Source: Affinundibacterium seohonense | GTDB lineage: Bacteria > Pseudomonadota > Gammaproteobacteria > Burkholderiales > Burkholderiaceae_D | Length of the DNA stretch: 64,000 nucleotides | Assembly (NCBI RefSeq): GCF_014284305.1 | Contig: NZ_JACOFW010000001.1 | Location: forward strand, 62,001-126,000 | Reading direction: 5' to 3' | Part shown: positions 8,111 through 41,521 of the stretch, piece by piece | Layout of the letters: each line of letters opens with the position of its first letter | How positions within the stretch are numbered: position 1 is the first letter of the stretch | Position numbers and translations under genes: made by a program | The notes under the pieces: generated by a model | The model's input: only the letters and a program-made list of their open reading frames with translations | What the model was told of the DNA's origin: nothing | Database searches by the model: none

Positions 8111-8203
8111 GCCCGAGTGGTGAAACTGGTAGACACATCGGACTTAAAATCCGCCGCTTTCCGTAAAAGGGGCGTGCCGGTTCAATTCCGGCCTCGGGCA
8201 CCA
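8111..8203 (+). tRNA. tRNA-Leu (TAA), island attachment site at its 3' end
   Basis: A 93-nt class II tRNA with acceptor stem gcccgag/ctcgggc, anticodon loop cttaaaa giving TAA, a long variable arm, T-loop ttcaatt and encoded CCA. The integrase gene starts 186 bp downstream. The 3' end from 8184 is nearly repeated at 41479-41499, marking the tRNA as the insertion site. The tRNA itself stays intact. Confidence 0.96.
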
Positions 8204-8205
8204 TT
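8184..8205 (+). repeat. attL-type direct repeat (tRNA-Leu 3' end)
   Basis: The tRNA 3' end plus two bases. Its core ttccggcctcgggcacca is repeated with one G fewer at the right end of the island. Attachment sites at the T-arm and acceptor end of a tRNA are usual for P4-type integrases. Confidence 0.8.
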
Positions 8206-8389: not shown

Positions 8390-9613
8390 ATGCTCACTGA
8401 TACCGCTATAAAAAATGCGAAGCACGGCGATAAAACTATCAAGATGTACGATGAAGGCGGTTTATATTTGTTGCTTCATCCCGCAAATGGGAAAGGGGGT
8501 AAATGGTGGCGTTTTAAGTACCGCTTTGAAGGTAAGGAAAAACTATTGTCGTTTGGTACCTACCCTGAGGTTTCACTTAAGGATGCCCGTAATCGCCGCG
8601 ATGAGGCAAAAAAGCTTTTAGCAAACAACGAAGATCCAGCTGAAGTTAGAAAGGCTCAAAACGCCGTAAAACAGATTGATGCTGCAAGTACGTTTGAGGC
8701 CGTTGCTATGGAGTGGTTTAAGTTGAAGATTATGCCATTATCCGCGAGTCACTCAGGGCGCACTTTGGCTTACCTAAAAAACGACCTAATTCCATACCTT
8801 GGTCAAATTCCCATTGACGAAATTAAAGCACCGGCCCTACTGGAGTGCCTACGTCGTATCGCTGCCCGAAAAAATAAGCAGGGTAAGCCCGTTACAGAAA
8901 CTGCAAACCGTGTTCGCGAGCAGATGGGACAATTATGGCGATATGCAATTGCTACCGGTAAAGCCGAACGCGATATCGCTGCTGATTTGCGTGGTGCGTT
9001 AGAGGCGCATGTACAAAAGAACTTTTCGCACATTACAGATCCCAAGCTTCTTGGACTACTGCTACGCGATATTGAAGGATATGGCGGCGCGCCGGTTACA
9101 GTCGCTGCACTTCGAATTTTACCTATGGTATTCACTCGTCCCATGGAATTGAGGACAGCACGTTGGGCTGACATTAACTTTGAAACGAAAGAGTGGCGTT
9201 TCTTTAGTTCAAAGACAAAGATCGATCATATCGTGCCGCTAGCATCGCAGGTAGTTGAACAGCTGAAGTCATTGTATTCGATCACAGGTATGGGGGAGTA
9301 TGTTTTTGGAGTGCGATCAGGGTTGCGCCCATTATCTGAAATTACAATTAATCAGGCTCTGAAGTCTTTGGGGTATGGCAGCGACATCATTCACCCTCAC
9401 GGCTTTAGACATACTGCTGCGACAATGTTGGCTGAGATGGGTTGGGATGAGAATACAATCGATCGCCAACTATCTCATTTAGTCCAGGGAGTTAAGGGCG
9501 TGTATCAAAAGGCAAAGTATATCGATGATCGTCGTAAAATGATGCAAGCATGGGCGGACTACCTTGATCAGCTCAAACTGGGAGCGCAAGTTATATCGTT
9601 AAAAACAGCCTGA
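8390..9613 (+). CDS. P4-type tyrosine site-specific integrase
   Basis: Catalyses insertion and excision of the island at tRNA-Leu. The N-terminal region (about residues 1-90, from LTDTAIKNAKHGDKTIKMYDEGGLYLLL) is the DUF4102 arm-binding domain of P4-like integrases. A SAM-like core-binding domain follows, then the catalytic domain with Arg in FTRPMELRTARWADI (near 249), HGFRH (about 337-341), LSH (near 363) and the probable nucleophile Tyr in GVYQKAKY (near 371). The ending MMQAWADYLDQL is typical. At 407 residues it looks intact and functional. It is oriented away from the tRNA into the island. Confidence 0.96.
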   Translation: MLTDTAIKNAKHGDKTIKMYDEGGLYLLLHPANGKGGKWWRFKYRFEGKEKLLSFGTYPEVSLKDARNRRDEAKKLLANNEDPAEVRKAQNAVKQIDAASTFEAVAMEWFKLKIMPLSASHSGRTLAYLKNDLIPYLGQIPIDEIKAPALLECLRRIAARKNKQGKPVTETANRVREQMGQLWRYAIATGKAERDIAADLRGALEAHVQKNFSHITDPKLLGLLLRDIEGYGGAPVTVAALRILPMVFTRPMELRTARWADINFETKEWRFFSSKTKIDHIVPLASQVVEQLKSLYSITGMGEYVFGVRSGLRPLSEITINQALKSLGYGSDIIHPHGFRHTAATMLAEMGWDENTIDRQLSHLVQGVKGVYQKAKYIDDRRKMMQAWADYLDQLKLGAQVISLKTA

Positions 9614-28150: not shown

Positions 28151-29779
28151 TCAGACAAGTAAGTCCATGAGTATCTTTTCAGAGTGGTCCTTTAAGACAA
28201 TTTCTAAGTTCATTTGTGCACGTGTCATTCCTACAAACAGCTTGCGCTTTTCTAAAGGGGTAAGTTCGGTAAAACTTACTTCACTTAGAATTACAGCTGG
28301 AGCGCTCTGTCCTTTGAAGCGATAGATTGAGTCGATACTTAGATGGCCCTCACTCCAAATTGGATCTCCATTTTTAGTATACTTACCCGTAAAACGGCGT
28401 ACTTGATAGGGACCGATAGAATCTCTATTGAGTAAAGTGGATTTACTCCTGCCTCGGCCAGTTAGAATGACGATGTCTTCTATCCTAAAGCCTCTCGCGA
28501 TCGTTTGTGTGACTGCAGCTTCGGTTTTTTGAAGTAACTCTTCTTCGGTTTTGTATGCGTAAAAATTTGGGATGGTGCCAAGATAAGGGCTCTTGCTTTG
28601 AATTGGGGCAGAAGAGAGTCCAAACGCATTGATCACTCTACAGATTTCTTTAGGACTTCGAAAATTATCGTTACAGGTAATTTGAACGGTGTCTTCTAAG
28701 TCAAACTTTGCTGTCTCATATAGACGTTGGTCGTCGTCCTCCATCACGTACAACTGTCCTTCATCTTCGAGGAGCATGCTTAGGCTGGAAAGCCAATTTG
28801 GGTTAAAGTCTTGAGCTTCATCGATGATTAGTATGTCGTAGCGAGCGGTAAAATTTTCACTGTCTGCAATATAGGTGAGGGTGACTTTGTCGAAAATTTC
28901 CGCGTCGTTGAAATCAGGTTCTTCGTGATGTCGACGATAGTGTTCGACACACAGTTCATGGAAATTGATGATCATTGCACGAGTTGGCCCAATGCTGCGC
29001 AAATGATCCGCTAATGGTCGGTTGTAACAAACATACGCCACTGATAGATTTTTTTCTAAAGAATCGGTCATTAGCTTCAGTGCCAACTGCGTTTTTCCTG
29101 AGCCGGCTGTTGCCTGAATACGGGTATTGCTAAGTGAAGAACGAATCCGAGGAACCCAGGTGGCGAGCCCATCTGACAAAAGTCTGACTGTGTCTTGAAG
29201 CTGGCCTTTGAGAACAGCGAGATCGGTACTGACCTTGAATTCATTTCGTAGGAAATGACGTAAAACAGATAAATCCTTGCAACCATAACCCGTGGCTAAG
29301 AACTCGCGAACACACCTGCCGATATTGTCATATGTGCGTGCGTCAATAATTCTATCGTTGGGAATTGACACGATATGCGATTCAAAGATCGAATAGTCTG
29401 GCATGACGAGGCAGGAGTTGACGGTAGTGACGATGCCAGCATGCATTAAACGATTGCGCATCGCTGCATATTGAATGCGGCATTGCTTACTAACATTATG
29501 GTCTCCGTTTGGATAGTGTTTGTAGAAGCTGCCATCACGTAAAGTCACTGGGCCAGCCTTTATCTCGACTAAAAGAATCTTTCCTACCGGATCAAGTACG
29601 ACGACATCAATTTCGCCGAATTGATCATGCTCATCCTCTACGGTATGAAATTCAACGCTATGGTAAATCTCATATTCCTCGGGTAATGATTGGGCGAGCC
29701 GTTCTATCACTTCGATTTCTCGAAAGAGTCCACCGTTGTGTTTTTTGATTGGAAGTCTGCTTGGATAAACGAGTGCCAT
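28151..29779 (-). CDS. NERD nuclease domain fused to SF1 (UvrD-like) helicase
   Basis: About 542 residues from the ATG at 29779; a TTG start at 29902 would add 41 basic residues and looks less likely. The N-terminal NERD-type domain has FGEIDVVVLDPVGKILLVEIKAG (Asp and ExK of a PD-(D/E)XK fold, about residues 52-75). The helicase has ATAGSGKTQLAL, LIIDEAQDFNP, CNDNFRSPKEI, SIYRFKGQSAPAVIL and LFVGMTRAQMNL, all SF1 motifs intact. A single-protein nuclease-helicase in a defence cluster suggests an anti-phage role comparable to known nuclease-helicase immunity proteins, but this is inference. It is convergent with the Gabija-like pair. Confidence 0.85.
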   Translation of the reverse strand: MALVYPSRLPIKKHNGGLFREIEVIERLAQSLPEEYEIYHSVEFHTVEDEHDQFGEIDVVVLDPVGKILLVEIKAGPVTLRDGSFYKHYPNGDHNVSKQCRIQYAAMRNRLMHAGIVTTVNSCLVMPDYSIFESHIVSIPNDRIIDARTYDNIGRCVREFLATGYGCKDLSVLRHFLRNEFKVSTDLAVLKGQLQDTVRLLSDGLATWVPRIRSSLSNTRIQATAGSGKTQLALKLMTDSLEKNLSVAYVCYNRPLADHLRSIGPTRAMIINFHELCVEHYRRHHEEPDFNDAEIFDKVTLTYIADSENFTARYDILIIDEAQDFNPNWLSSLSMLLEDEGQLYVMEDDDQRLYETAKFDLEDTVQITCNDNFRSPKEICRVINAFGLSSAPIQSKSPYLGTIPNFYAYKTEEELLQKTEAAVTQTIARGFRIEDIVILTGRGRSKSTLLNRDSIGPYQVRRFTGKYTKNGDPIWSEGHLSIDSIYRFKGQSAPAVILSEVSFTELTPLEKRKLFVGMTRAQMNLEIVLKDHSEKILMDLLV

Positions 29780-30226
29780 AAATGGTTTAATTGATGTGTT
29801 TGAGATGTGGACATGAGCAAGTAAAACGTGTGCGCGTAATTTACGCTCTCTTGAATGTAAATTCAATCTTGAGCGAGAACTTTTGAATCGGTGAACACTC
29901 AAAGTGCTTCAAAAAATGAAGTAGGACTATCATCAATAACTAACAACATGCGACACAAAATGTCGCGCTGCTGTTTTATATTTATTTGGGCGTTCAAGTT
30001 ACCTAATTTTTGAGTAAATTTTACGCGTAAAAAAATAAGGGGTGAACCACTCTTTACATGTAAAGAGTGCGAAAATTTTTCTTGGCTCGATCTATTAAAA
30101 TAGATTTTCAAAAAGCTGCTAGAACCCCTAGCCAAAGTTGTTCTGTGTGCCATATGATGACCACCTGTTTTATTGTCGCGTGAACGAAGAGTGCATCTAG
30201 TGATGTGCTAACTTTTAGGAGAATGG
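29780..30226. other. Divergent promoter region between NERD-helicase and WYL genes
   Basis: 447 bp with no convincing gene; the 84-codon frame at 29899-30153 lacks coding character. It contains a hairpin gcgaca/tgtcgc (about 29950-29967), the 14-bp perfect palindrome ttttacgcgtaaaa (30019-30032) and the 22-bp perfect palindrome at 30048-30069. These are candidate operators for the adjacent WYL regulator, which could control both divergent units. Confidence 0.6.
30048..30069. promoter_or_regulatory. 22-bp perfect palindrome, probable regulator operator
   Basis: The half site cactctttaca is followed immediately by its exact reverse complement tgtaaagagtg with no spacer. It lies 158 bp before the WYL regulator ATG in a divergent promoter region. 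WYL-type dimers such as BrxR bind inverted repeats upstream of their own genes, so autoregulation is a reasonable inference. Confidence 0.55.
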
Positions 30227-31225
30227 ATGTCCGATGCATTAAAGCGCCACTTCGATATTTTGAAGATGCTGTCAAAAGATAGAGCGCTTAAGACAATTGA
30301 TGTGCACCAAAAATTAGAAGTACTTGGACACGATATATCCAAGAGGTCAGTCGAGAGAGACTTGCAAAGGTTGTCTTTGACTTATCCTATCGTCACAGAT
30401 GAGAAAGATAATGCTTTGTGGTGGCGATATGCGCAAGGTGTCGCGATCAATCTCTTTCCAGGTTTGAGTGAAGCTGAAGCAGTCAGCTTTATCATGCTTA
30501 AACAGTTTGCTCAGCAGCTGCTGCCAGAGAGCCTAGCACAAGATTTAGAGCCGTATTTTCAGGAAGCCAAACGTACGCTTTCAACTGGCATCTCGAAAAG
30601 CGCGATACGTTCATGGCCAGATAAGATTCGCACCGTTCCAGCAAATCAACCGCTCTTGAAACCGCATGTCTCAAATAAAGTACAAAAGGAGGTGCATGCT
30701 GCACTACTGCGTGATCAGCAGCTTCGAGTGCATTACCAAGCGCAGGGCAAGCCAGAGCCGAGAGAATACGTCATTAACCTATTGGGCTTAGTTGAACACG
30801 GCGCGGCTCAATACTTAGTCGCCAATTTTGAAGGGCACGATTCTGCACGCATTCTCGCGCTGCATCGTATTCATGCTGCTCACATGCTACCAACCAAAAC
30901 TATCAAGCTCAAAGACTTCGATCTAGATGCATACATCGCTTCAGACGCATTCGGCTTTAGTAGCAATGCACCAGAAATTGAAGTTGTATTGCGATTCTAT
31001 GATGGCGCAGGATTTCATTTGAAAGAGACTCCGCTATCACGAGATCAACGTGTACACGAGATTGATGAGCAGACTTTGGAAGTGACTGCAACGGTTCGTG
31101 ATAATCGACGGTTTCGATGGTGGTTGTTGGGGTTTGGCGCAGGTGTTGAACTTATACAGCCGGATAAAGTTAGATCTGAATTGCTTGAGATATTTTCAAA
31201 AAATGTTACTACCTATTCCTCATAA
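30227..31225 (+). CDS. WYL-domain transcriptional regulator
   Basis: A 332-residue protein with an N-terminal winged helix (residues 1-65: RHFDILKMLSKDRALKTIDVH, SKRSVERDLQRLSLTYPIV). A middle WYL domain (about 150-215) has REYVINLLGLVEHGAAQYLVANFEG, and a C-terminal WCX-like domain has VVLRFYDGAGFHLKETPLS and RRFRWWLLGFGAGVEL. It is similar in layout to BrxR/CapW-type regulators that sit at the head of defence operons and repress them until infection. A good taggaga site precedes the ATG. It is followed by the zinc-ribbon/GTPase operon on the same strand after 134 bp. Confidence 0.88.
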   Translation: MSDALKRHFDILKMLSKDRALKTIDVHQKLEVLGHDISKRSVERDLQRLSLTYPIVTDEKDNALWWRYAQGVAINLFPGLSEAEAVSFIMLKQFAQQLLPESLAQDLEPYFQEAKRTLSTGISKSAIRSWPDKIRTVPANQPLLKPHVSNKVQKEVHAALLRDQQLRVHYQAQGKPEPREYVINLLGLVEHGAAQYLVANFEGHDSARILALHRIHAAHMLPTKTIKLKDFDLDAYIASDAFGFSSNAPEIEVVLRFYDGAGFHLKETPLSRDQRVHEIDEQTLEVTATVRDNRRFRWWLLGFGAGVELIQPDKVRSELLEIFSKNVTTYSS

Positions 31226-31359
31226 CTTTTTGAGAAACATGGAACGCAGCCGACCGAGAAAATGTGACTAGATGGAGGAAGCTTCAATGTTGCGATCTAA
31301 GGAATAGTACATTCAAATACTAACAATCATCATTACAACTAAACTCAAATAGATCAAAC

Positions 31360-31566
31360 ATGGCGATTACTCCACTTCCGACAAATTATTCATGCCCCAC
31401 TTGTGGTTGGAAAAAAACTTTCTCACCGAGAAGTGATGCACTCATAGAAAGTTATCCCACCTATTGCCCAGTCTGCAATGAGAAAAACATCAGGATTCAA
31501 AACGGATCACATGCTATAGCAGGCTTTCAAGCAATCGTTAATGACATCAAAAAATTTTTTAGCTGA
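31360..31566 (+). CDS. Small zinc-ribbon protein, first gene of GTPase operon
   Basis: A 68-residue protein with two CPxC pairs, SCPTCGW (about 11-17) and YCPVCNEK (about 35-42), which should bind one zinc ion. The ending, FQAIVNDIKKFFS, looks like a short amphipathic helix. No known family recognised. It starts the tight run of five genes (36 bp before the first GTPase), suggesting it is a partner or adaptor for the dynamin-like proteins. Confidence 0.75.
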   Translation: MAITPLPTNYSCPTCGWKKTFSPRSDALIESYPTYCPVCNEKNIRIQNGSHAIAGFQAIVNDIKKFFS

Positions 31567-31602
31567 ACAAAGCTTCATTTTACTCACCTACGGATATCCA
31601 TC

Positions 31603-33330
31603 ATGCTATCAACTCAAACCAAACTTATTAACTATATAAAATCGGTTCAGCAAGAGATCAAAGCGAGTGCTACGGAAATTGCACATCCAAGTATTGACAA
31701 AATTTGTGCTGATGTCAGCTCTCAAACTGAAACACAAATTGAGGTGATTTCCGAAACGAAATTATTGGTTCCAGTCATCGGTGCATTTAGTGCAGGCAAA
31801 TCCTCGTTGCTTAATGCGTTTATGGAACGATCACATCTACCCGTTGCCATTACTCCTGAAACTGCATTAGCAACTGAACTCCATTACTCAAAAGAAGAGG
31901 TCATAGAGGCATGCGGCATTGATAATCGCATCCACAAATTTCAGTTGCAAGAATTCGCGCAGATCACAGCACGTGCCCAAGAGTTCCAATACCTTCGTGC
32001 ATATATCAACAGCCCATCTTTGCAATCTATTCAACCGCTAATTCTGGTTGATATGCCAGGATTTGACTCTCCATTAGATGCACACAATCAGGCCATCAAT
32101 TTCTTTCTAAGTCGTGGTACGCATTTTGTATTCTTAACTAGTGTCGAGGAAGGCGGATTGCACCGACATGCCTTACGTCAAATGCGTGAAATATTAGATT
32201 TAAGCCGCCGATTTAGCGTCTGTTTAAGCAAATCTGATCTCAAACCAGAAAGCCAAGTCAACGAAATTGTGGCGCATATTGAGGACCAAATTACGAACGA
32301 ATTTGGTAGTAACTTTGGCGTCATTACGCTGAATCAGTATAACGCTCAGCAGCAATTATCTAAGTTAGTTGAGGATATTGACCCTGAATTCGTCACGGCG
32401 AACCTACACATACCGCATCTAAAGAAGGCTTACTACGAAACAAATGCAGCACTTGTGGCTATTGCCAATTCTTTAGGTAAAAGCAAACAAGAGATTAATG
32501 AAAAACTCGAAGCAATCAAAAACGATTTGAATAACCTAGAGGATGAGCGTAAGCGACAACTACAAGAAATCTCTGGGCCAGATGCTAATGACCTAGCTTT
32601 GCCAGTGATGAATGCCTTGAAAGCCGCGTTGCAAAATTCGACTAGTGAACTAGTTGAAGCCGCAATGAGAAACCCGCGAGACTTAGAATTGGAATTAAAC
32701 GAATTAGTACGCAGCACAATGAATCGCGAGGTACTTTTGGCAACTGAAGCCTTTTCCACAAATACAGTCCAACGTTTTGAAAAATTTGCACAAGATCATT
32801 TAAAAGTCGACTTTCAAATACCCACTGATGTTATTCAGATCGGCCTTGATGCTATCAAATCGCCTCTACTTGGCGCCATCGCCAAACAACTAGGAGGAAA
32901 AGCATCGAAAAAAATGGCGACAGTAGCGATGAGAACAATTGGTGTTGGCGTAAGCATTGCAAATCCGATAGTAGGAATTGTGACTGCCCTTTTACCTGAT
33001 TTAGTTGAATCTTTATTTGGAACGATTAAGACAAACCGTCAACGTGAAGCAATAAAGATGTCGTTGCAATCGGATCTATTTGCTCAAGTCATAAGTCAAA
33101 TGAAAATTAAGGTCACTGAGCACATGTCACAAGTCGCTCAAAGTGTAGTCGAAACCATTTCACATGAATTTAGCCAACGTCTTGAAAATGAACGATCCAT
33201 CTATGAACTACAAGAAAACCAACATCAAGAAGAACTTGCAGTTTTAGAAGCTAAAACTCAACGAATTAAAAAGACTAACGTCAATCTTCTAAAGTTGGCT
33301 TCCGGCGTGATTATCGACTCTGCAATTTGA
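31603..33330 (+). CDS. Dynamin-like GTPase 1
   Basis: A 575-residue protein. The GTPase motifs are G1 GAFSAGKSSLLNA (about 60-72), a G2 Thr in VAITPETALATELHY, G3 DMPGFDSP (about 150-157) and a divergent G4, SKSD (about 208-211). A long helical stalk-like region follows, with coiled-coil pattern around 280-330 (LEAIKNDLNNLEDERKRQL). A Gly/Ala/Ile-rich hydrophobic segment lies around 445-480 (VAMRTIGVGVSIANPIVGIV), a possible membrane-inserting paddle. A second coiled coil near the end precedes a hydrophobic tail. The order GTPase-helices-hydrophobic loop-helices fits bacterial dynamin-like proteins. No specific family name could be given. Confidence 0.82.
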   Translation: MLSTQTKLINYIKSVQQEIKASATEIAHPSIDKICADVSSQTETQIEVISETKLLVPVIGAFSAGKSSLLNAFMERSHLPVAITPETALATELHYSKEEVIEACGIDNRIHKFQLQEFAQITARAQEFQYLRAYINSPSLQSIQPLILVDMPGFDSPLDAHNQAINFFLSRGTHFVFLTSVEEGGLHRHALRQMREILDLSRRFSVCLSKSDLKPESQVNEIVAHIEDQITNEFGSNFGVITLNQYNAQQQLSKLVEDIDPEFVTANLHIPHLKKAYYETNAALVAIANSLGKSKQEINEKLEAIKNDLNNLEDERKRQLQEISGPDANDLALPVMNALKAALQNSTSELVEAAMRNPRDLELELNELVRSTMNREVLLATEAFSTNTVQRFEKFAQDHLKVDFQIPTDVIQIGLDAIKSPLLGAIAKQLGGKASKKMATVAMRTIGVGVSIANPIVGIVTALLPDLVESLFGTIKTNRQREAIKMSLQSDLFAQVISQMKIKVTEHMSQVAQSVVETISHEFSQRLENERSIYELQENQHQEELAVLEAKTQRIKKTNVNLLKLASGVIIDSAI

Positions 33331-33356
33331 TGACCAACAACGACCACGGATAAATC

Positions 33357-35621
33357 ATGCAAGTAAAAGATCAACTAATTCAGCAATTAAAGCAAGTGCA
33401 AGTAATTCAAACGCAGTTCGGGGATCTGATTGGTAATGACTTCAAGTCCGCCATAGATGACTCAAAAGTGCATTCGATAGGCGATATCGAAAATCATCTC
33501 AAAATACTAAAAGAAGAAAATAGAACCCTGCAAATTGGCATTATTGGTAGGGTGAAAGCAGGTAAGTCCTCGCTACTAAATGCCTTGTTTTTTGATGGTA
33601 AAGATGTGTTACCACATGCAGCAACACCGATGACTGCGGCTCTAACAACTTTGAGCTATGGAGATCGTCCAGCCATGCGTGTGGAATTTTTTTCCAAAAT
33701 AGATCTGTTGGCGTTTGAGAGACTTTTTAAAGATCACGAAGAGGCGATCTCTAAAGGGATAGAAGAAAAAAAGCAGCACCGTCAACAAGCAGCCTTACGC
33801 GTGACTGCGCCTACTTCTAATATTGCTGCTTCCCGCAAGTCGCCGTCAGTGGCGGTGCGCGCAATTCCTGAGAAAACTGACAATGAATGGTACGACATCG
33901 TTAAGAAAGAATTGCAAAGCAAAAATCCTAGCACTGCTTCTGCGCATGAACTTTGGTGCAATGTGGTTGAGGCTGGTGGCATTGAGAAGCGACCAAAAGA
34001 TCTACGAATTGAGAAGAATAGTATTGCAGAATTGAGTCGAAGCCTAGGGGATTATGTCGGTGCGAAAGGACGGCATACACCCTACACCAAATGTTTGCAT
34101 CTGGAATTACCTTTTGAATCGTTAAAAGACATCTGCGTGGTTGATACACCGGGTCTAAATGATCCCATACTATCCCGTGAAAAGCGGACTCAAGATATGT
34201 TGAAGGAGTGTGACGCTGTATTCGTTATTAGTCCCGCTGGACAATTTCTCACAACACAGGATCTAGAGTTACTGGAGCGCTTGGCAAGCCGTGAAGGTGT
34301 AAGAGAAATTTTTGTGATTGCCAGTCAAATTGATGGTCAGCTATTTGGCGCCGAATTACAGGATTGCGCAGGAGAGATTCTTGAGGCAATCAGTCGCCAG
34401 AAAAAGAGTTTGATTAAACAGGCTCAAAAAGTGTTCGATAGTGAAGCGGTGCAACGCTTACAAATTGGTGATTTATCTGAGCAACTTGAGCAACGAATGC
34501 TAACAACGTCAAGCGTAGCATATGCGATGCAAACACTTCCACCTGCAAAATGGAATGACACTATCAAGCATGCTGATGAGATGTTGCAGAAAAAATATCC
34601 CTTAGGGTTCGCAAATCCTGAACAACGCAAACAAACCTTGGAAGCCTTGTCCGGCCTACCTTCGGTCGTTCAATCATTACATCACGTCCGACATCATAAA
34701 ACCAATATTTTTGCCTGTCGTGAGTCTGACTATCTCGATGGTCAGTTGCAGGCAAGTGAAGCCTTAGTGAGTGCACTTAAAGTCAGAGCCGAAAAGCACC
34801 AATCTATTTTTATTAATTCGGACTTAGGTGAAGTTAATGCCAGATTAAAGGAAATCAATTCTGTACGTAAAGTAGGAATTGCATCAGCTGTTACCGTTTA
34901 TGATCAGTTGCTTCAGGATTTGCGGATTAACTTACCCATAGAACTAAAGAAGTTAATAAATACGAGTTTTGAGAAAGCATCTAGCAAAGCGGAGAGCGCC
35001 AAAGGCTCTGAATTAAGGACACGTAACGTTTCCGGTATGTGGTCTTGGATGAAGAGAGTAGTCGGGACTGGAGGCACAGAAGACTACTCTGTCATGATAA
35101 TTGATGCTGCCAGTGTCAGGCGTGAATTCGAGAACTTTAGTGCAATCCTTGAGACATCGCTCATTGAATTAGTCGGCAAAACTGGCATCAAATGGCGTAA
35201 TGATGCAAACAAAGATATTTTGGCGGCATTACGTGAAGCCATCGATAGTACTTATATTGATGTGAATGAAATCAAGAGAAATTTGCGAAATGTGGTCAAT
35301 GATATGCTGTCAGTGCCGGTACCGGAGCTTCCTAGCATACCAGACAACATGTATGCGACAGGCAAACTTGAGTCTTCCCAAGCAGTAGCGTTTGGTGAGG
35401 CTGCAAAAGAATATCTTGATAATTTAAAGAAATTAAGCGGCACCTATGTCGAGAAATTCGAGAAGCAGTTAAAGGAGTCTGAAAAGAAAAGTATCGGTGA
35501 AGCTTTATTTGATGACTTGCTACAAGAGGCAGAAGAACTCAGAAAGCAACTCAAAGATTGTCAAGCTACTAAGCAACGGTATGATAAATTGTTATCTCTG
35601 CTTGAAGAGATGGCAGCATGA
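33357..35621 (+). CDS. Dynamin-like GTPase 2
   Basis: The largest of the four at 754 residues. G1 is GIIGRVKAGKSSLLNALFF (about 62-80), the G2 region is HAATPMTAALTTLSYG and G3 is VDTPGLNDPI (about 262-271). The G4 position reads IASQID instead of NKxD, so base recognition may differ. An insertion of roughly 100 residues between G2 and G3, rich in Lys, Ser and Ala, is unusual. Long helical segments and a C-terminal coiled coil (SIGEALFDDLLQEAEELRKQ) complete a dynamin-like plan. It starts 26 bp after GTPase 1 and overlaps GTPase 3 by 4 bp (ATGA). Confidence 0.82.
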   Translation: MQVKDQLIQQLKQVQVIQTQFGDLIGNDFKSAIDDSKVHSIGDIENHLKILKEENRTLQIGIIGRVKAGKSSLLNALFFDGKDVLPHAATPMTAALTTLSYGDRPAMRVEFFSKIDLLAFERLFKDHEEAISKGIEEKKQHRQQAALRVTAPTSNIAASRKSPSVAVRAIPEKTDNEWYDIVKKELQSKNPSTASAHELWCNVVEAGGIEKRPKDLRIEKNSIAELSRSLGDYVGAKGRHTPYTKCLHLELPFESLKDICVVDTPGLNDPILSREKRTQDMLKECDAVFVISPAGQFLTTQDLELLERLASREGVREIFVIASQIDGQLFGAELQDCAGEILEAISRQKKSLIKQAQKVFDSEAVQRLQIGDLSEQLEQRMLTTSSVAYAMQTLPPAKWNDTIKHADEMLQKKYPLGFANPEQRKQTLEALSGLPSVVQSLHHVRHHKTNIFACRESDYLDGQLQASEALVSALKVRAEKHQSIFINSDLGEVNARLKEINSVRKVGIASAVTVYDQLLQDLRINLPIELKKLINTSFEKASSKAESAKGSELRTRNVSGMWSWMKRVVGTGGTEDYSVMIIDAASVRREFENFSAILETSLIELVGKTGIKWRNDANKDILAALREAIDSTYIDVNEIKRNLRNVVNDMLSVPVPELPSIPDNMYATGKLESSQAVAFGEAAKEYLDNLKKLSGTYVEKFEKQLKESEKKSIGEALFDDLLQEAEELRKQLKDCQATKQRYDKLLSLLEEMAA

Positions 35622-37465
35622 GCCTTACACCACATTTTGTCGAACGCGCACGATCATCGCTTGAACGATTATCATGTTGGTGGAGGTGCTGGGGTCGCAG
35701 CACTGATGTCAATGTCCTCTCGCAATTGATATTGGAAGCAGAGTCAAACTTAGTTCAGTCCATAAAAGAGTTTGGAGTTATCCAAGGAAAATTAGAAGCT
35801 TTGAATCATGATTTTTTGAAGTTAAACCATGAAAGAGATGCCCTTCAAAAGTCTTTCGAAACGCTACAGATTTCGCATACCGATTTGAAGCAAGAGCATG
35901 TGGCTCAATCGCAAGTCTTGAATGAAGAGCGTGTTGCGTCTCAGATAGTGCAAGTCAATTTGAAAAAGCTAAGTCAGGAATTTATCATCCTGACCGAACT
36001 TAAAGACGAGATTCAACAGTCTTTCGATAGGCTATACATTTCACATACAGATTTGAAACAAGAGCATGAGGCACAGTCACTGGTTTTGCAAAACGAGCGT
36101 GCAGGTTTTATTGTGATGCAAACATCACATATTTTTTTAAAAGATATATTGAGTGCTCAAGACGACTATCTGCCTAAACATCAAAATTTTCAACGCCTGT
36201 TCTACGATGATTTCATGGCATTTGCAAACTCAGAAAATTTTTTCGATCGTGAAGCTGATGCGGTACTTCAGTTACAAGCTGTCTCTGATGAAGTGCGATT
36301 ACTCTCGAGATTTCCGGTATTTCGCGAAAAAACCATTGTCGCCATTGCGGGAGGCTTTAGCAGCGGGAAATCATCTTTGTTAACAAGCTTTTTTGATGAT
36401 AAATCCTTGGTTCGTTTGCCGATAGGAATAGAGCCGGTGACTGCAATACCTACCTATATCGTCTCTGGTGAGCGTTCGGTGATTACTGGCTTTGCTGCAC
36501 ACGGTGGTACTGTCGCGATTTCTTCGGAGCTATATGCCAAAATGGGGCATAAATTTGTCGAATCATTAGGGTTTGACCTTCGACGCATACTTCCCTTTGT
36601 TGCATTGGAAACCCAATGGACAGATCAATTGGATCACCTGTGCTTTATCGATACCCCTGGCTATAACCCACCCTCAATAGGAATCACTGCCTCTGATAGC
36701 ACTGCAACTGTTGAAGCGCTACAACAAGCCGATGCAGTGCTTTGGGTGATTGCACTCGATGCTAATGGAGAAATATCTCATAGTGATATTGAGTACCTGA
36801 CAGCGCACCTTCCATTAACGCCGCTTGGTATTGTTATTAATAAAGCAGATTTGCGTCCACTTACGCAAGTTATGGAAGTGATGAAACAAATCGGAGACAC
36901 TTTAGATACCCTTGGCATCGAATATATAGGAATCAGTGCGTATAGCAGCGTAGAAAAACGGGAATTAGCTTTCGAGAAGGCCAGTCTGCAAGAGATGCTA
37001 CAAATTTGGAATGTACCTAGCTTACGTAAGGACAGACTAATTGCCGACGTCAAACAAGTATTCGATTCCTACAGAGATGCATTTCTGCACGAAATCGAAC
37101 ATCGAAAAGGCTTAGCTACTATAGTCAAAGATCAGTTATTGGATTTGCACGAACTAGGGATATTTGATGAAGAAATTCAAGAGTCCAATGCGGATGATAC
37201 AAATAAATATGAAACGTCTGAATCGATCGAGAATGTAAATCCAATACCGACTCTAGGGTCGCTTCTAAAGGATAAGCTTGATACAAAATCACCAATTGAA
37301 ATCAAAGAAAAGAGATCTGTACGCGCACAAAAAGTGCGGCAGGATTTGTCGCAAAGATTAAATGATATGAATGGGCGAACCGACTTGCTTATTCTTAACG
37401 AGCTGCTCGACACAGCTACCCATATTGAGGAAGCCATGACGGAGGTACTTAACGATGAATGGTGA
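35618..37465 (+). CDS. Dynamin-like GTPase 3 with N-terminal repeated coiled coil
   Basis: A 615-residue protein. Residues about 25-185 form a coiled coil holding a duplicated 56-residue unit (ISHTDLKQEHVAQS and ISHTDLKQEHEAQS, 168 bp apart). The GTPase domain follows: G1 AGGFSSGKSSLLTSFF (about 244-259), GIEPVTAIPTYI in the G2 region, G3 DTPGYNPP (about 344-351) and G4 NKAD (about 406-409). A helical tail ends the protein. It is clearly related to GTPase 4 over the whole G domain (the IPTYI region, HGG, NKADLRP, AYSSVE). Start overlaps GTPase 2 by 4 bp; the end overlaps GTPase 4 by 11 bp. Confidence 0.85.
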   Translation: MSLTPHFVERARSSLERLSCWWRCWGRSTDVNVLSQLILEAESNLVQSIKEFGVIQGKLEALNHDFLKLNHERDALQKSFETLQISHTDLKQEHVAQSQVLNEERVASQIVQVNLKKLSQEFIILTELKDEIQQSFDRLYISHTDLKQEHEAQSLVLQNERAGFIVMQTSHIFLKDILSAQDDYLPKHQNFQRLFYDDFMAFANSENFFDREADAVLQLQAVSDEVRLLSRFPVFREKTIVAIAGGFSSGKSSLLTSFFDDKSLVRLPIGIEPVTAIPTYIVSGERSVITGFAAHGGTVAISSELYAKMGHKFVESLGFDLRRILPFVALETQWTDQLDHLCFIDTPGYNPPSIGITASDSTATVEALQQADAVLWVIALDANGEISHSDIEYLTAHLPLTPLGIVINKADLRPLTQVMEVMKQIGDTLDTLGIEYIGISAYSSVEKRELAFEKASLQEMLQIWNVPSLRKDRLIADVKQVFDSYRDAFLHEIEHRKGLATIVKDQLLDLHELGIFDEEIQESNADDTNKYETSESIENVNPIPTLGSLLKDKLDTKSPIEIKEKRSVRAQKVRQDLSQRLNDMNGRTDLLILNELLDTATHIEEAMTEVLNDEW

Positions 37466-38870
37466 TGAAGCAAACATACAACATCGTTTACTTAAGGAAC
37501 TTATAGTTCCTGCACTCAGATCAAAACCTGAAGAGAATTCCCCTTTATCCGTCTTCAAAAACCTAATCGACACCAAATTTGCTGCGTTCGCCAGACAAGC
37601 AGGGTCAATGATTTCGCAAGAAATATACGAAAGTCATGCTGAAGAATGGCGGTCGATCTTACAGCAATTAGAAGTTTTAACCGCCACGGCAGCAATAAGA
37701 CGCAAACGACTAGTCGCGGTGGGTGGTGGTTTTAGTGCTGGCAAATCGGCCTTCGTCTCTAGCTTAATGCAGAATAAATCTATGCGTCTGCCAAGTGGCA
37801 TTGAGCCTATTACGGCGATACCGACATATGTTATCGCTGGCAACAGCGATAACATTACGGGGCATACTGTGCATGGTGGCGGAATCACGATTGAGATTGA
37901 TCTTTACCGACATTTGACACACGAGGTAATTCACGAGGCCAGCATTAACCCAAAAGAGGTTATTCCATTTATTGTAATTGATACGGCAATACTCAAACTA
38001 GAACATATTGGCTTAATTGATTTGCCTGGACATAATCCCGCTGGATTCAATGACAATACTGTTCAAGACGCACAGACAACTGAGGATTACAGCGACAAAT
38101 CAGATGCCTTGATTTGGGTACTAGGAATAGACTCGACTGGTACCTTGCCTCAAGATGACATAGCGCCGATACTTCATTGGGTTATCCGTGGAAAACCTGT
38201 CTATGTAGTGCTGAACAAAGCGGATTTGCGTCCACAAAGCCAGATCGCCGAAATAATGGCAGAAGTTAAAACTCAGTTGCAGAGTGAACGCATTCCGTAT
38301 GAAGGTATTTGTGCTTATAGTTCAGTCGAAGCACACTCGTATGCGCAATACAAACGCGGCATCAACACATTCTTAAAAGCATTCGATGAACCTTCAGAAG
38401 ACCCTCTTCGCAAAATAAAGCAGCAGCTTGATGGCATTTTTAGGGAGTACAAAGAAAGTATAGAATTCGCCATTGAAGAGCGGCAACAAATGGTGAATCG
38501 ATTTCGTTCTCTTACCTTAAATTTGAACAAGGCTAATGACTTGTTCGATCAGATCACTGCACCACCGAAAAAGAAACGCGCACGAAAAAAAATAATTTTA
38601 GAAACTACGCCTTCGGTCGATCCAACATCTCCCTGGCCATTTTTTTCAGGCAGGTCAACAAAGCCTGCTGAAGAGCCAGCAGAACCCGATGTTCCTGCCG
38701 CCGCATTTGATCACGATGATATAGAAAGGCTCTTGGTTTTGCGCGAGCGCGCGTCGAACTACCTAGAAGAACTTAAGGCAACAATAGAGCCATTAAAACA
38801 CCTACGTGATCTGATAGAAGAAGGTGATCAAATTAAGAAAGCAATGAGAAAAGTAATGAGCTCAATTTAG
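37455..38870 (+). CDS. Dynamin-like GTPase 4, paralogue of GTPase 3
   Basis: A 471-residue protein without the N-terminal coiled coil of GTPase 3. G1 is VGGGFSAGKSAFVSSLM (about 88-104), the G2 region is GIEPITAIPTYVIAG, G3 is DLPGHNPAGF (about 188-197) and G4 is LNKADLRPQSQ (about 251-261), with CAYSSVEA as a G5-like element. Helices after the G domain surround a basic, proline-rich linker (PPKKKRARKK, then SPWPFFSGRS) near 370-410, probably flexible and possibly nucleic-acid binding. It is the last gene of the operon, followed 6 bp later by a hairpin terminator. Confidence 0.85.
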   Translation: MNGDEANIQHRLLKELIVPALRSKPEENSPLSVFKNLIDTKFAAFARQAGSMISQEIYESHAEEWRSILQQLEVLTATAAIRRKRLVAVGGGFSAGKSAFVSSLMQNKSMRLPSGIEPITAIPTYVIAGNSDNITGHTVHGGGITIEIDLYRHLTHEVIHEASINPKEVIPFIVIDTAILKLEHIGLIDLPGHNPAGFNDNTVQDAQTTEDYSDKSDALIWVLGIDSTGTLPQDDIAPILHWVIRGKPVYVVLNKADLRPQSQIAEIMAEVKTQLQSERIPYEGICAYSSVEAHSYAQYKRGINTFLKAFDEPSEDPLRKIKQQLDGIFREYKESIEFAIEERQQMVNRFRSLTLNLNKANDLFDQITAPPKKKRARKKIILETTPSVDPTSPWPFFSGRSTKPAEEPAEPDVPAAAFDHDDIERLLVLRERASNYLEELKATIEPLKHLRDLIEEGDQIKKAMRKVMSSI

Positions 38871-39113: not shown

Positions 39114-39434
39114 GATTTTTTCCTTTTGAAGAAAGTAGATATTAAATATGATGCTAGCGATCGCTCGACTTTTTTTTCGTTTTTGCGATCAAGGTATCCA
39201 AGCGTTTTCCATTTTGCCTTCCTCTTTAATTTGCTGATGTGATTATGGGTTTCTTTCTGTCGATAACCAAATGATGGGCTAAAGTCGCGACAGTATCTGT
39301 CGCGATACTCATTTATGGTTGTTACGTATAAAATCACTTACATAGATTTGTGGTTGTAGACAAAGTTTATGCCGTGGAATTTTTGAATTACATGTTTGTT
39401 GATAAAGGTATCTTTAAAGAATTCAGGATATGGG
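39114..39434. other. Divergent gap between micro-protein and HNH-like gene
   Basis: 321 bp, AT-rich, without another credible gene. It should hold the promoters of both the minus-strand 44-residue membrane protein and the HNH-like gene. The sequence gctagcgatcgctcg around 39155 contains the palindrome agcgatcgct. Confidence 0.45.
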
Positions 39435-40484
39435 ATGACTCTTACAGAAATACAGATCTACTTTCGCCATGTCTTACCAGCGAAAGATGATCAAATCTTT
39501 TTTTTATCTCAGCTGCTGGAATCTGTTTCCATAGCTAGGGAATATTCTGGTGCCTGGTCTACAACAATGTTGAAAAATGGGTTTCGCTTAAACGTTGGTC
39601 AAGTTGAAGCTTTAAGTTGTACTTTTCAAAAAGTTGAATCGGCACGGAAGTCCGGCTGTCAGATCGAGCTCCGCATATTGCTTGCAGGTGATGATTGTGA
39701 TTTAGCATTCAATCTCAATCCGGAATTTGAATCAATAGTTGCTATGAATTACGCATCTATTGGACAAGCTCATTGGTGTTATAGCTTTATGCTTGGTACC
39801 TTGCATTCGATGAATTTAGAGGATATTTTGGATGATGTTGGAGAGCAGATTAAGCGCCTTGCTGGATTGCGCAGGCGATACATTGATCGTGCAAGCCATA
39901 CATCGATTGGAAAAGTACGAAATAAGTCCAATTTCGCAGCGACTCATTGCCCCGCTTTGATAGAGTACGCAGAGTTAATTTGCAAAGTCGAGAATGAGTC
40001 CACGGGCGGGTGGTACAACGGATATAGCTGGAAAGAGCGCGAAGCAAAATTAAAAGAAGCGCATCGACTTCAAGAAATGGGAGTGTTGCAGCCTGCATCC
40101 GGCCCGTGCCAGTTATGTGGTGACCCTAATGTGGAAGTTAAATCTCATGACGAAGATTATAGTCTTCCGTACTTGTGGGGCGGTACCGCAGAATATGCCC
40201 TCTGTCTCCACTGCCACATACACAAACTGCATCGTCGATTTACTAACCCACAATTGTGGTTAGATTTCTTGGCACATGTACGCCGAGGAGGTTACGCTAG
40301 TGATCTTAAAGATAAAGAAATCAGCAAAGAATTTTCTCAGTACCGTAAAGCCGTTGCATCTGGTAGTGCATTTACTTTAGTTAGTTTAAGACCCTATACC
40401 CAAGAAATCGGGCAAGAGTGGTTTTCTAAATTGAGTACTGATCCCAGCAGCCTGAGAGATACGAACGCTAGACCACGTCCATAA
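39435..40484 (+). CDS. HNH-like zinc-finger protein
   Basis: About 349 residues from the ATG at 39435; a TTG at 39396 gives 362 but has little support. The N-terminal 200 residues are not recognised. The C-terminal region reads GPCQLCGDPNVEVKSHDEDYSLPYLWG (about 223-249), then YALCLHCHIHKLHRRF (about 255-270). Two CxxC pairs flank a Ser-His-Asp-Glu-Asp sequence, the pattern of a zinc-braced HNH nuclease, though a classical HNH assignment of each residue is not certain. It is placed at the distal end of a defence-rich island, followed by another orphan gene 22 bp later. Confidence 0.6.
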   Translation: MTLTEIQIYFRHVLPAKDDQIFFLSQLLESVSIAREYSGAWSTTMLKNGFRLNVGQVEALSCTFQKVESARKSGCQIELRILLAGDDCDLAFNLNPEFESIVAMNYASIGQAHWCYSFMLGTLHSMNLEDILDDVGEQIKRLAGLRRRYIDRASHTSIGKVRNKSNFAATHCPALIEYAELICKVENESTGGWYNGYSWKEREAKLKEAHRLQEMGVLQPASGPCQLCGDPNVEVKSHDEDYSLPYLWGGTAEYALCLHCHIHKLHRRFTNPQLWLDFLAHVRRGGYASDLKDKEISKEFSQYRKAVASGSAFTLVSLRPYTQEIGQEWFSKLSTDPSSLRDTNARPRP

Positions 40485-40506: not shown

Positions 40507-41133
40507 ATGACATTACAAAATCGTGTTACGCCTTTTGGCCAACTGAAAGCCATCAATTCGCGTGGGAAGTTTTTAGGAAATCGCGGAATACTTCATAACG
40601 ATGAAAAGCACATTATCAAGCAATGGCGCCATAAAGCGTGGGTGACTTGTAGGCTTGATTATCCAGGCATTCGACGTGAGATTTTTAGTAAGGGTAACTA
40701 TTCCGAATTGTTTTTTCTTGATGAAGTGACTGCTTTATCTGCCGGACATAGGCCATGTGGTGAATGTCGTAGAGATGACTACAAGCGTTTTAAGGAACTT
40801 TGGCAGATGGCGAATTTAGAGTCATGTGAATCCGGCAGCATAAGCATTGCACAGATTGATAAGCAAGTCCATACCGAGCGCGCAGGGCGAGATGGCACCA
40901 AGGTGACATACCAGTCTAGTTTGAATGAAGTTCCCAACGGAGTTTTCATTTCAATCAATGGGGTCGCAGTCTTAAAGTGGAACAATAAGTTGCTCGAATG
41001 GTCTGCTGATGGATATTCAAAATACGAAGGTGTTTTACCGGAAGATTTTGTCGTTGATGTCCTCACGCCCAAATCTGTAGTTGGCGCGGTGAAAGCTGGA
41101 TACGTGCCACAAGTTCATCATTCTGCTGATTAG
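40507..41133 (+). CDS. Conserved-looking protein with GHRPCGECRR motif
   Basis: A 208-residue protein not assigned to a named family. The most striking segment is ELFFLDEVTALSAGHRPCGECRRDDYKRF (about 77-105), with His and two Cys in HxxCxxC spacing, followed downstream by QIDKQVHTERAGRDG. It resembles uncharacterised proteins seen in many bacteria, from memory only. The arrangement suggests a metal site, possibly catalytic. It follows the HNH-like gene by 22 bp and is probably co-transcribed. Confidence 0.6.
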   Translation: MTLQNRVTPFGQLKAINSRGKFLGNRGILHNDEKHIIKQWRHKAWVTCRLDYPGIRREIFSKGNYSELFFLDEVTALSAGHRPCGECRRDDYKRFKELWQMANLESCESGSISIAQIDKQVHTERAGRDGTKVTYQSSLNEVPNGVFISINGVAVLKWNNKLLEWSADGYSKYEGVLPEDFVVDVLTPKSVVGAVKAGYVPQVHHSAD

Positions 41134-41478: not shown

Positions 41479-41499
41479 AATTCCGGCCTCGGCACCATT
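41479..41499 (+). repeat. attR-type direct repeat
   Basis: Contains ttccggcctcggcaccatt, matching the tRNA-Leu 3' end except for one missing G in the ggg run. It marks the right boundary of the island, 23 bp before a terminator that probably belonged to the tRNA operon. Confidence 0.8.
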
Positions 41500-41521
41500 T
41501 TATATTGTAGTAAGTTTTTCT

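What the first reader, a model, noticed from the sequence alone, without database searches (positions are those of the whole stretch)
30227..38870. WYL regulator plus zinc ribbon plus four dynamin-like GTPases: candidate new defence system
A WYL-type regulator (30227-31225) is followed by a five-gene operon of a 68-residue zinc ribbon and four large GTPases of 575, 754, 615 and 471 residues. Gaps and overlaps are +36, +26, -4 and -11 bp, so translation is coupled at two junctions. Each GTPase has a P-loop and a DxPG motif, followed by long helices. GTPase 1 has a hydrophobic segment like a dynamin paddle. The known dynamin-like defence system Eleos (LeoA/LeoBC) has two such proteins; four with a zinc ribbon and WYL control does not match any system I know. 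Location inside a defence island between a Gabija-like system and HNH-type genes supports an anti-phage role, for example membrane remodelling or sensing of infection at the membrane.
Basis: partly seen in the sequence, partly recalled or inferred. Interest (0 to 1): 0.88.

Follow-up and report, generated by a model that had tools for sequence, protein, structure and literature searches.

The report
Three-dynamin membrane defence operon
A mobile piece of bacterial DNA full of anti-virus genes carries an operon of membrane-shaping enzymes of the dynamin family; three distinct kinds travel together in unrelated bacteria and look like an undescribed membrane-acting defence system.

Summary
In detail: a WYL regulator, a 68-aa zinc ribbon and four Dynamin_N GTPases lie in one operon. 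The four-GTPase reading needs correcting. The GTPases fall into three families, A (G1), B (G2) and C (G3); G4 looks like a C duplicate seen only here. A, B and C occur together, once each, in 10 other loci (11 of 12 judgeable with the window; four phyla); 9 of the 11 hold all three in the tree's main clades. A proteins have a paddle-like hydrophobic segment (13 of 13); B have none (0 of 14), C 2 of 13. One relative fuses A to a patatin phospholipase. The operon lies in a 33-kb integrative element with type I restriction and Gabija genes; two congeners have the empty site. A perfect 22-bp palindrome lies upstream of WYL. By the models it is not Eleos, and the papers listed in ten searches do not describe it. 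Best reading: a WYL-controlled anti-phage module assembling dynamin hetero-oligomers on the inner membrane. The defence role is inferred, not shown.

The parts
30048..30069 (.). Perfect 22-bp palindrome (11-bp arms, no spacer), candidate operator of the WYL regulator, in the divergent region between the NERD-helicase gene and WYL
   Evidence: only perfect palindrome with arms of 8 or more bases in the 64-kb window; no second copy in the window or in the 4.87-Mb genome with up to 3 mismatches
30227..31225 (+). WYL/WCX-domain transcriptional regulator
   Evidence: WYL 43.5 bits, WCX 55.8 bits, both over cut-off
31360..31566 (+). 68-aa zinc ribbon (two CxxC)
   Evidence: PF14205, 26.7 bits, cut-off 25.5; small two-CxxC frames at the 5' end of 4 other loci
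31603..33330 (+). G1: A-type dynamin-like GTPase with paddle-like hydrophobic segment at about residues 445-464
   Evidence: nearest solved structure by profile Cj-DLP2 5owv_C, E 1e-11
33357..35621 (+). G2: B-type dynamin-like GTPase, no hydrophobic segment over threshold
   Evidence: nearest solved structure by profile Cj-DLP1 5owv_A, E 3e-24
35618..37465 (+). G3: C-type dynamin-like GTPase with long N-terminal helical stretch (low-confidence model)
   Evidence: overlaps G2 by 4 bp
37455..38870 (+). G4: second C-type GTPase, probable duplicate of G3
   Evidence: overlaps G3 by 11 bp
8184..8205 (+). attL: 3' end of tRNA-Leu(taa)
41479..41500 (.). attR: about 22 bp repeat of the tRNA-Leu 3' end (14 bp exact)
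   Evidence: empty-site comparison with two congeners
8390..9613 (+). Tyrosine integrase of the element that carries the operon

Best explanation
The operon is a mobile, WYL-controlled anti-phage module built on three dynamin-like GTPases. In the resting cell the WYL protein would sit on the 22-bp palindrome and keep expression low. An infection- or damage-derived ligand would release it, as proposed for CapW. The A protein (G1) would insert its hydrophobic paddle into the inner membrane. The B protein (G2, nearest to Cj-DLP1) would join it in a hetero-oligomer, as the Campylobacter Cj-DLP1/Cj-DLP2 pair does. The C proteins (G3, and its duplicate G4), GTPases without a membrane segment, would regulate or sense through G-domain contacts. 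Triggered assembly would remodel or breach the inner membrane and stop phage release, at the cost of the cell. Shown here: gene content, three conserved families, paddle-like segment in every A protein, mobile defence island, candidate operator, a patatin-A fusion in one relative. Inferred: phage defence, hetero-oligomer, trigger, membrane breach.
For: The three families co-occur, one copy each, in 10 of 11 judgeable loci other than the window, although those loci were found with B or C queries. Main clades A 99/95, B 100/99, C 99/96; the subgroup {window, Pseudomonas, Calditerrivibrio, G1085} recurs in all three; distance correlations r 0.69-0.79, permutation p 0.0002-0.0004 over 11 loci. Hydrophobic segment in 13 of 13 A, 0 of 14 B, 2 of 13 C. 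A and B profiles have as best solved structures the two partners of one known heterotypic pair. Patatin-A fusion with GTSVG and DGG motifs, plus a TerB-domain gene, in G842. Defence neighbours: Gabija and type I restriction (window), ZorD and EH_Signature (L012), HsdR (L019), Hhe/PDC-S37 and an SNF2-type helicase (L042), PDC-S02 (L062). 33-kb element with empty site in two congeners. Palindrome of the size CapW binds (19-24 bp; passages of PMC9122588). DynA of B. subtilis clusters on the membrane after phage infection and delays lysis (abstract of PMC8844932).
Against: No phage phenotype is known. Full-length models of G1 and G3 are poor (mean pLDDT 58 and 57), so the trunk and paddle geometry is unproved; G2 and G4 were not modelled. 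In the two most remote loci (L019, L042) the A rows, and with them the whole A group, do not form one clade (0% of 200 bootstrap trees for A, 11% for B, 84% for C), so class assignment there rests on best BLAST hit. WYL was seen in 4 of 12 judgeable loci, so control is not uniform. Strong defence-gene neighbours were seen in 5 of 14 loci, with incomplete scanning and no random-gene control. The plasmid loci L011, L013, L014 and L015 show no annotated defence neighbour, which would also fit an element-maintenance role. The patatin fusion was seen once. The correlations also arise if the cassette simply moves as a block. The promoter scan gave no more sites than shuffles (14 against 21.2).
Confidence: 0.5

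Rival explanations
1. Membrane-protective rather than suicidal defence: the dynamins assemble at damaged inner membrane and seal or stabilise it, delaying lysis and release of progeny, as DynA of Bacillus subtilis does.
For: DynA precedent (abstract of PMC8844932); no separate toxic domain in the window's GTPases by Pfam; paddle-like segment in 13 of 13 A proteins.
Against: The patatin-A fusion in G842 points to membrane damage, not repair. A WYL regulator fits a module that must be kept off (inference). DynA is a single two-headed protein, this is a mobile three-family set.
Confidence: 0.22
2. A mobile-element maintenance or plasmid-conflict function: the operon serves the element that carries it (conjugation exclusion, partition, membrane anchoring) and defence islands are only where it lands.
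For: 5 of 14 loci are on plasmids; in Photobacterium it sits between a TraU-family gene and traN; the window copy is in an integrative element.
Against: Neighbours in 5 of 14 loci are anti-phage genes of unrelated types; the carriers differ (an integrative element, five plasmids of different species, other contigs); patatin and WYL are typical of immunity operons (established knowledge, not tested here).
Confidence: 0.18
3. A general membrane-maintenance or vesicle-release machine (as proposed for LeoABC) that is horizontally spread and not devoted to defence.
For: leoA and leoB knockouts lower vesicle release (passages of PMC4159319); weak similarity of G1 to LeoBC/LeoA models.
Against: Rarity: the B family in 2 of 398 genomes of the phylum sample (own included); the E. 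coli version in 5 of 5,426 E. coli genomes, all on plasmids (DNA search); C family in 1 of 145 sampled genomes of the window's family, its own.
Confidence: 0.1

Closest known systems
Eleos (LeoA + LeoBC), known dynamin-type defence system
   Same: Operon of dynamin-like GTPases; G1 shows weak similarity to LeoBC and LeoA models.
   Different: Two dynamins (LeoBC sometimes split; passages of PMC4159319) against three families here; the LeoA family model gives 22.1 bits against a cut-off of 325; WYL and zinc-ribbon companions are not part of the Leo unit in the passages I read.
Campylobacter Cj-DLP1/Cj-DLP2 heterotypic pair
   Same: B profile hits Cj-DLP1 best (E 3e-24) and A profile hits Cj-DLP2 best (E 1e-11); adjacent genes; membrane tethering shown for that pair (passages of PMC6104087).
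   Different: A pair, with no C partner described. Cj-DLP sequences themselves were not in my tree; two-dynamin loci of Sulfurospirillum (L018) and a Helicobacteraceae assembly (L022) fall outside the A, B and C main clades, one member of each lying in the wider B group. Not described as a defence system in the passages read.
DynA of Bacillus subtilis
   Same: Bacterial dynamin with a phage phenotype at the membrane (abstract).
   Different: One protein made of two fused dynamins (passages); it delays lysis; three separate families, WYL and zinc ribbon are features of the present operon.
CapW/BrxR WYL repressors of CBASS and BREX
   Same: WYL plus WCX domains and a palindrome of about 20 bp upstream.
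   Different: Would control a dynamin operon; the palindrome ends 157 bp before the start codon and its overlap with a -10 box is not shown; no DNA-binding domain found by Pfam at E 0.1.

Membership tests
Dynamin superfamily (Dynamin_N) | Dynamin_N GTPase domain with P-loop and DxPG | tested here: met
   4 of 4 over the Pfam cut-off; motifs
Dynamin superfamily (Dynamin_N) | Helical neck/trunk with membrane-binding tip | tested here: inconclusive
   Long helices predicted and Foldseek top hits BDLP, IniA, Cj-DLP, mitofusin, but mean pLDDT 58 and 57 and low TM-scores
Eleos | Full-length match to LeoA (NF041922, cut-off 325 bits) | tested here: not met
   G1 22.1 bits, best stretch of 56 residues; not listed at E 0.1 for G2, G3, G4
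Eleos | LeoA plus LeoBC, two dynamins | tested here: not met
   Three supported families. PADLOC LeoBC E 1.6e-7 (G1), 6e-6 (G2), 0.01 (G4); LeoA E 2e-6 (G1), 3e-4 (G4), 0.009 (G3) (PADLOC's own cut-offs are not shown)
Cj-DLP1/2-type heterotypic pair | Adjacent genes related to Cj-DLP1 and Cj-DLP2 | tested here: met
   Best solved structures of B and A profiles; A and B adjacent in window, L011, L012, L013, L014, L016, L061, L062, not adjacent in L015, L017, L019, L040, L042
Cj-DLP1/2-type heterotypic pair | 2:2 assembly and liposome tethering | not testable with these tools
   Needs purified proteins
WYL immune repressor (CapW/BrxR type) | WYL and WCX domains | tested here: met
WYL immune repressor (CapW/BrxR type) | N-terminal helix-turn-helix | tested here: inconclusive
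   No HTH family reached E 0.1 in Pfam; residues 1-140 unassigned, no fold predicted
WYL immune repressor (CapW/BrxR type) | Palindrome of about 20 bp in its promoter region | tested here: met
   22-bp perfect palindrome, unique in window and genome; binding and promoter position not tested
Anti-phage defence system | Protects against phage | not testable with these tools
   Location evidence only

The most novel reading that the evidence does not exclude
A defence family not yet in print: an obligate three-part dynamin machine (A membrane-inserting, B partner, C regulatory GTPase) under WYL control, in which the A subunit is a membrane docking platform that can carry a swappable killing domain such as a patatin phospholipase. 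It would be the first immune system in which three non-redundant dynamins work together.
Probability: 0.42. Interest if true: 0.78.

Novelty: new variant of a known kind. Interest (0 to 1): 0.64.

Why it matters
Dynamins shape membranes in mitochondria and, as Mx proteins, in animal antiviral immunity (Mx recalled, not tested). A bacterial immune module with three non-interchangeable dynamins would give a simple system in which to test why such proteins work as hetero-oligomers. The patatin fusion would link dynamin defence to the phospholipase effectors known from CBASS (recalled). Concrete predictions follow: paddle in A essential, B dispensable for membrane binding, WYL binding the palindrome.

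Tried and rejected
Searches that gave nothing: B protein in 50,697 phage records; A, B and C profiles in IMG/VR viral contigs (72, 95 and 35 pattern hits, none confirmed by tblastn). Of these 19, L016, L017 and L019 are counted; L026, L029, L030, L031, L032 and L034 were not annotated; L018, L020, L021, L022, L023, L024, L025, L027, L028 and L033 were but are remote dynamins and were left out of the co-occurrence count (L018, L020, L021 and L022 are the x rows). L021 holds three and L020 three remote dynamins, L018 and L022 two each.

Rejected: Eleos membership. Rejected: four-dynamin unit. Considered and not adopted: the 84-aa minus-strand ORF at 29899-30153 (overlaps the palindrome, no support). 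At first I took the E. coli and Moraxella plasmid loci to lack A, because the PLSDB gene table omits it; some searches showed A upstream of B in both. C_Elu was dropped from the tree because its DxPG motif was not found by the pattern. The promoter scan found 14 sites against 21.2 in shuffles and was not used. A random-gene control for defence neighbours was considered and not run. Structure models are too weak to argue from beyond the G domain.
Full report
Observation. Pfam confirms WYL and WCX domains, a Cys_rich_KTR-type zinc ribbon just above cut-off, and Dynamin_N above cut-off in all four GTPases. PADLOC gives only weak Leo matches (best E 1.6e-7, G1 to LeoBC), and the NCBIfam LeoA model scores 22.1 bits against a cut-off of 325.

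Setting. The operon is cargo of an integrative element. tRNA-Leu(taa) at 8111-8203 is followed by a tyrosine integrase, a YagK/YfjJ-like protein (under its cut-off), DUF3987, AlpA, a recombination-directionality-like factor, YqaJ, DUF932, HsdM and HsdS, a type I R-subunit-like protein (PADLOC REase_I E 3e-34), GajA, GajB, a NERD-UvrD helicase, then the operon, an HNH-looking gene and an unassigned gene, then nadA. In the congeneric genomes G889 and G453 the sequence left of the tRNA end runs directly into the sequence right of 41479, with 22 and 20 bp overlap: an empty site, and an element of about 33.3 kb. Four other congeners (L054-L057) aligned only from 41596 on and say nothing about the left side.

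Three families. All-against-all BLAST and a G-domain tree of 49 rows sort the GTPases of 14 loci into A (G1), B (G2) and C (G3, G4). In one search each dynamin frame scores best with its own class. The gap is wide for most, narrow for the C proteins of L019 (68 against 64 bits) and L042 (80 against 66). Main clades have support 99/95 (A, 11 rows), 100/99 (B, 12 rows) and 99/96 (C, 11 rows). Against this, the remote Elusimicrobiales and G026 rows fall outside the main A and B clades, G026 falls outside the main C clade, and C_Elu was not in the tree; with these rows in, the groups are one clade in 0% (A), 11% (B) and 84% (C) of 200 bootstrap trees.

Loci. L041 (B, C) and L062 (A, B) are cut by contig ends. 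Of the other 12, 11 hold A, B and C in one cluster, 9 of them with all three in the main clades; L016 holds A and B only. Leaving out the window, which was chosen for its four GTPases, it is 10 of 11; these were found with B or G4 as query, so the other families were not selected for. The 11 span Pseudomonadota, Deferribacterota, Synergistota and Elusimicrobiota (the last two phylum names recalled from the family and order names). Orders: A-B-C (window, L011, L012, L061, L013, and L014 with one gene between B and C), A-C-B (L019, L042, and L015 and L017 with genes in between) and C-A-B (L040, with the TerB gene before B). Distances of A, B and C correlate across 11 loci (r 0.71, 0.69, 0.79; permutation p 0.0002-0.0004) and across the nine without the two remote ones (r 0.58-0.64, p 0.0004-0.005). 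This shows travel as a unit; it cannot separate co-evolution from joint transfer.

G4. G3 and G4 are each other's nearest rows by path, joined at 97/37, with 31.7% identity over 369 residues; G3 is closer to the Pseudomonas C protein (40.2%) than G4 is (31.5%). Each of the other 10 loci with all three families has exactly one C gene. So the fourth GTPase is best read as a lineage duplicate.

Membrane segment. With a 19-residue Kyte-Doolittle mean of 1.6 as threshold, 13 of 13 A proteins have a hydrophobic segment starting 356-412 residues after the P-loop, 0 of 14 B proteins have any, and 2 of 13 C proteins do, both extended proteins (Moraxella 1291 aa, G189 1166 aa). The E. coli and Moraxella A proteins have one further segment each elsewhere. 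Classes came from BLAST and the G domain, not from this segment. Of the 10 remote x rows 3 have a segment. Profiles of A and B have as best matches in the PDB the two partners of one solved pair, Cj-DLP2 (5owv_C, E 1e-11) and Cj-DLP1 (5owv_A, E 3e-24); C has only weak GTPase and EHD2 matches (best E 4.5e-6). AlphaFold models of G1 and G3 have mean pLDDT 58 and 57; Foldseek matches are to BDLP, IniA, Cj-DLPs, mitofusins and EHD proteins, with TM-scores of 0.45 or less in the rows shown.

Companions. A small two-CxxC frame lies at the 5' end on the same strand in 5 of 12 judgeable loci: window, L012, L015, L017, L061. Other hits of that scan lie antisense or inside larger genes, apart from one upstream at L019, which I did not count. 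The alignment is loose, so common descent of these small proteins is not shown. WYL lies upstream in 4 of 12: window, L012, L040, L061; in L061 only the WCX part reached Pfam's cut-off. In L040 the A protein carries an N-terminal patatin domain (E 3e-27) with GTSVG and DGG motifs, and a TerB-domain protein is in the same operon.

Control. A perfect 22-bp palindrome at 30048-30069 lies between the divergent NERD-helicase gene and WYL. It is the only perfect palindrome with arms of 8 or more bases in the window; of 20 mononucleotide shuffles, 5 had one with arms of 9 or 10, none 11. It has no second copy in the genome with up to 3 mismatches. CapW binds palindromes of 19-24 bp in CBASS promoters (passages, PMC9122588) and BrxR binds inverted repeats (passages, PMC9122601). 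The palindrome might equally serve the divergent helicase. No perfect palindrome of that length was found upstream of WYL in L012, L040 or L061, only shorter or imperfect ones.

Defence neighbours. Strong PADLOC or Pfam matches near the cluster: window (Gabija, type I restriction), L012 (ZorD E 0, EH_Signature), L019 (HsdR), L042 (Hhe/PDC-S37, SNF2-type helicase), L062 (PDC-S02): 5 of 14 loci. Flanks were scanned in part: by PADLOC 5 ORFs in L040 (WYL and TerB genes among them), 3 each in L016, L017 and L062, 2 in L042, 1 each in L011, L012, L019 and L061, none in L013, L014, L015 and L041. L017 has a HerA/Mad8-like ATPase next door. L016, L040, L011 and L061 gave no defence match beyond WYL. 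There was no random-gene control.

Rarity. C profile in 1 of 145 sampled genomes of the family (the window's own). B profile in 2 of 398 of the phylum sample, own genome included, 3 of 247 in the order of G842, G842 included, 1 of 31 and 1 of 3 in the orders of G026 and G189 (themselves). G4 in 3 of 369 of the class sample, own included. 5 of 5,426 E. coli genomes carry the E. coli plasmid version by DNA, all on plasmids.

Literature. Ten searches of open papers gave capped lists of titles and abstract starts; none listed describes a three-dynamin, WYL- or zinc-ribbon-linked dynamin system. Subscription papers and most preprints are not held, so absence from print is not shown. What Eleos consists of rests on PADLOC names, the LeoABC paper (passages) and recall; one paper calls Eleos 'a Dynamins-like defence system' (passage, PMC11811056).

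Verdict. A real, conserved three-dynamin cassette, most likely a membrane-acting anti-phage module, new as a variant of dynamin-type defence. Defence and mechanism remain to be shown at the bench.

Noticed in passing
   Followed up: partly
window 8184-41500: 33-kb integrative element at tRNA-Leu(taa) with type I restriction, Gabija, a NERD-UvrD helicase and the dynamin operon; empty site in two congeners.
   Followed up: yes
window 28151-29902 (minus strand): NERD-UvrD helicase divergent from WYL, sharing the intergenic region with the 22-bp palindrome; best PADLOC match RTasNERD-Hel (E 6e-21); I did not look for a reverse transcriptase. Could be a separate defence gene or share the regulator.
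   Followed up: no
L013 7111-8817 (E. coli plasmid pRHBSTW-00863_2): A-type dynamin gene absent from the PLSDB gene table except for a 73-aa piece at its 3' end; frames just upstream look by eye like an IS3-type transposase.
   Followed up: partly
window 39396-40484 and 40507-41133: Two genes between the operon and attR: one with an HNH-like Cys/His motif by eye, one with a CxxC-containing motif by eye; no Pfam match at E 0.001.
   Followed up: no
G000 contig C84 27465-28100 (L002): A further Dynamin_N protein (648-aa open frame) elsewhere in the same genome.
   Followed up: no
   Followed up: no
L014 6714-10589 and L041 3048-6548: C-type GTPases with long extra parts of unknown function (1291 and 1166 aa), the first with two strongly hydrophobic segments near its end.
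   Followed up: no
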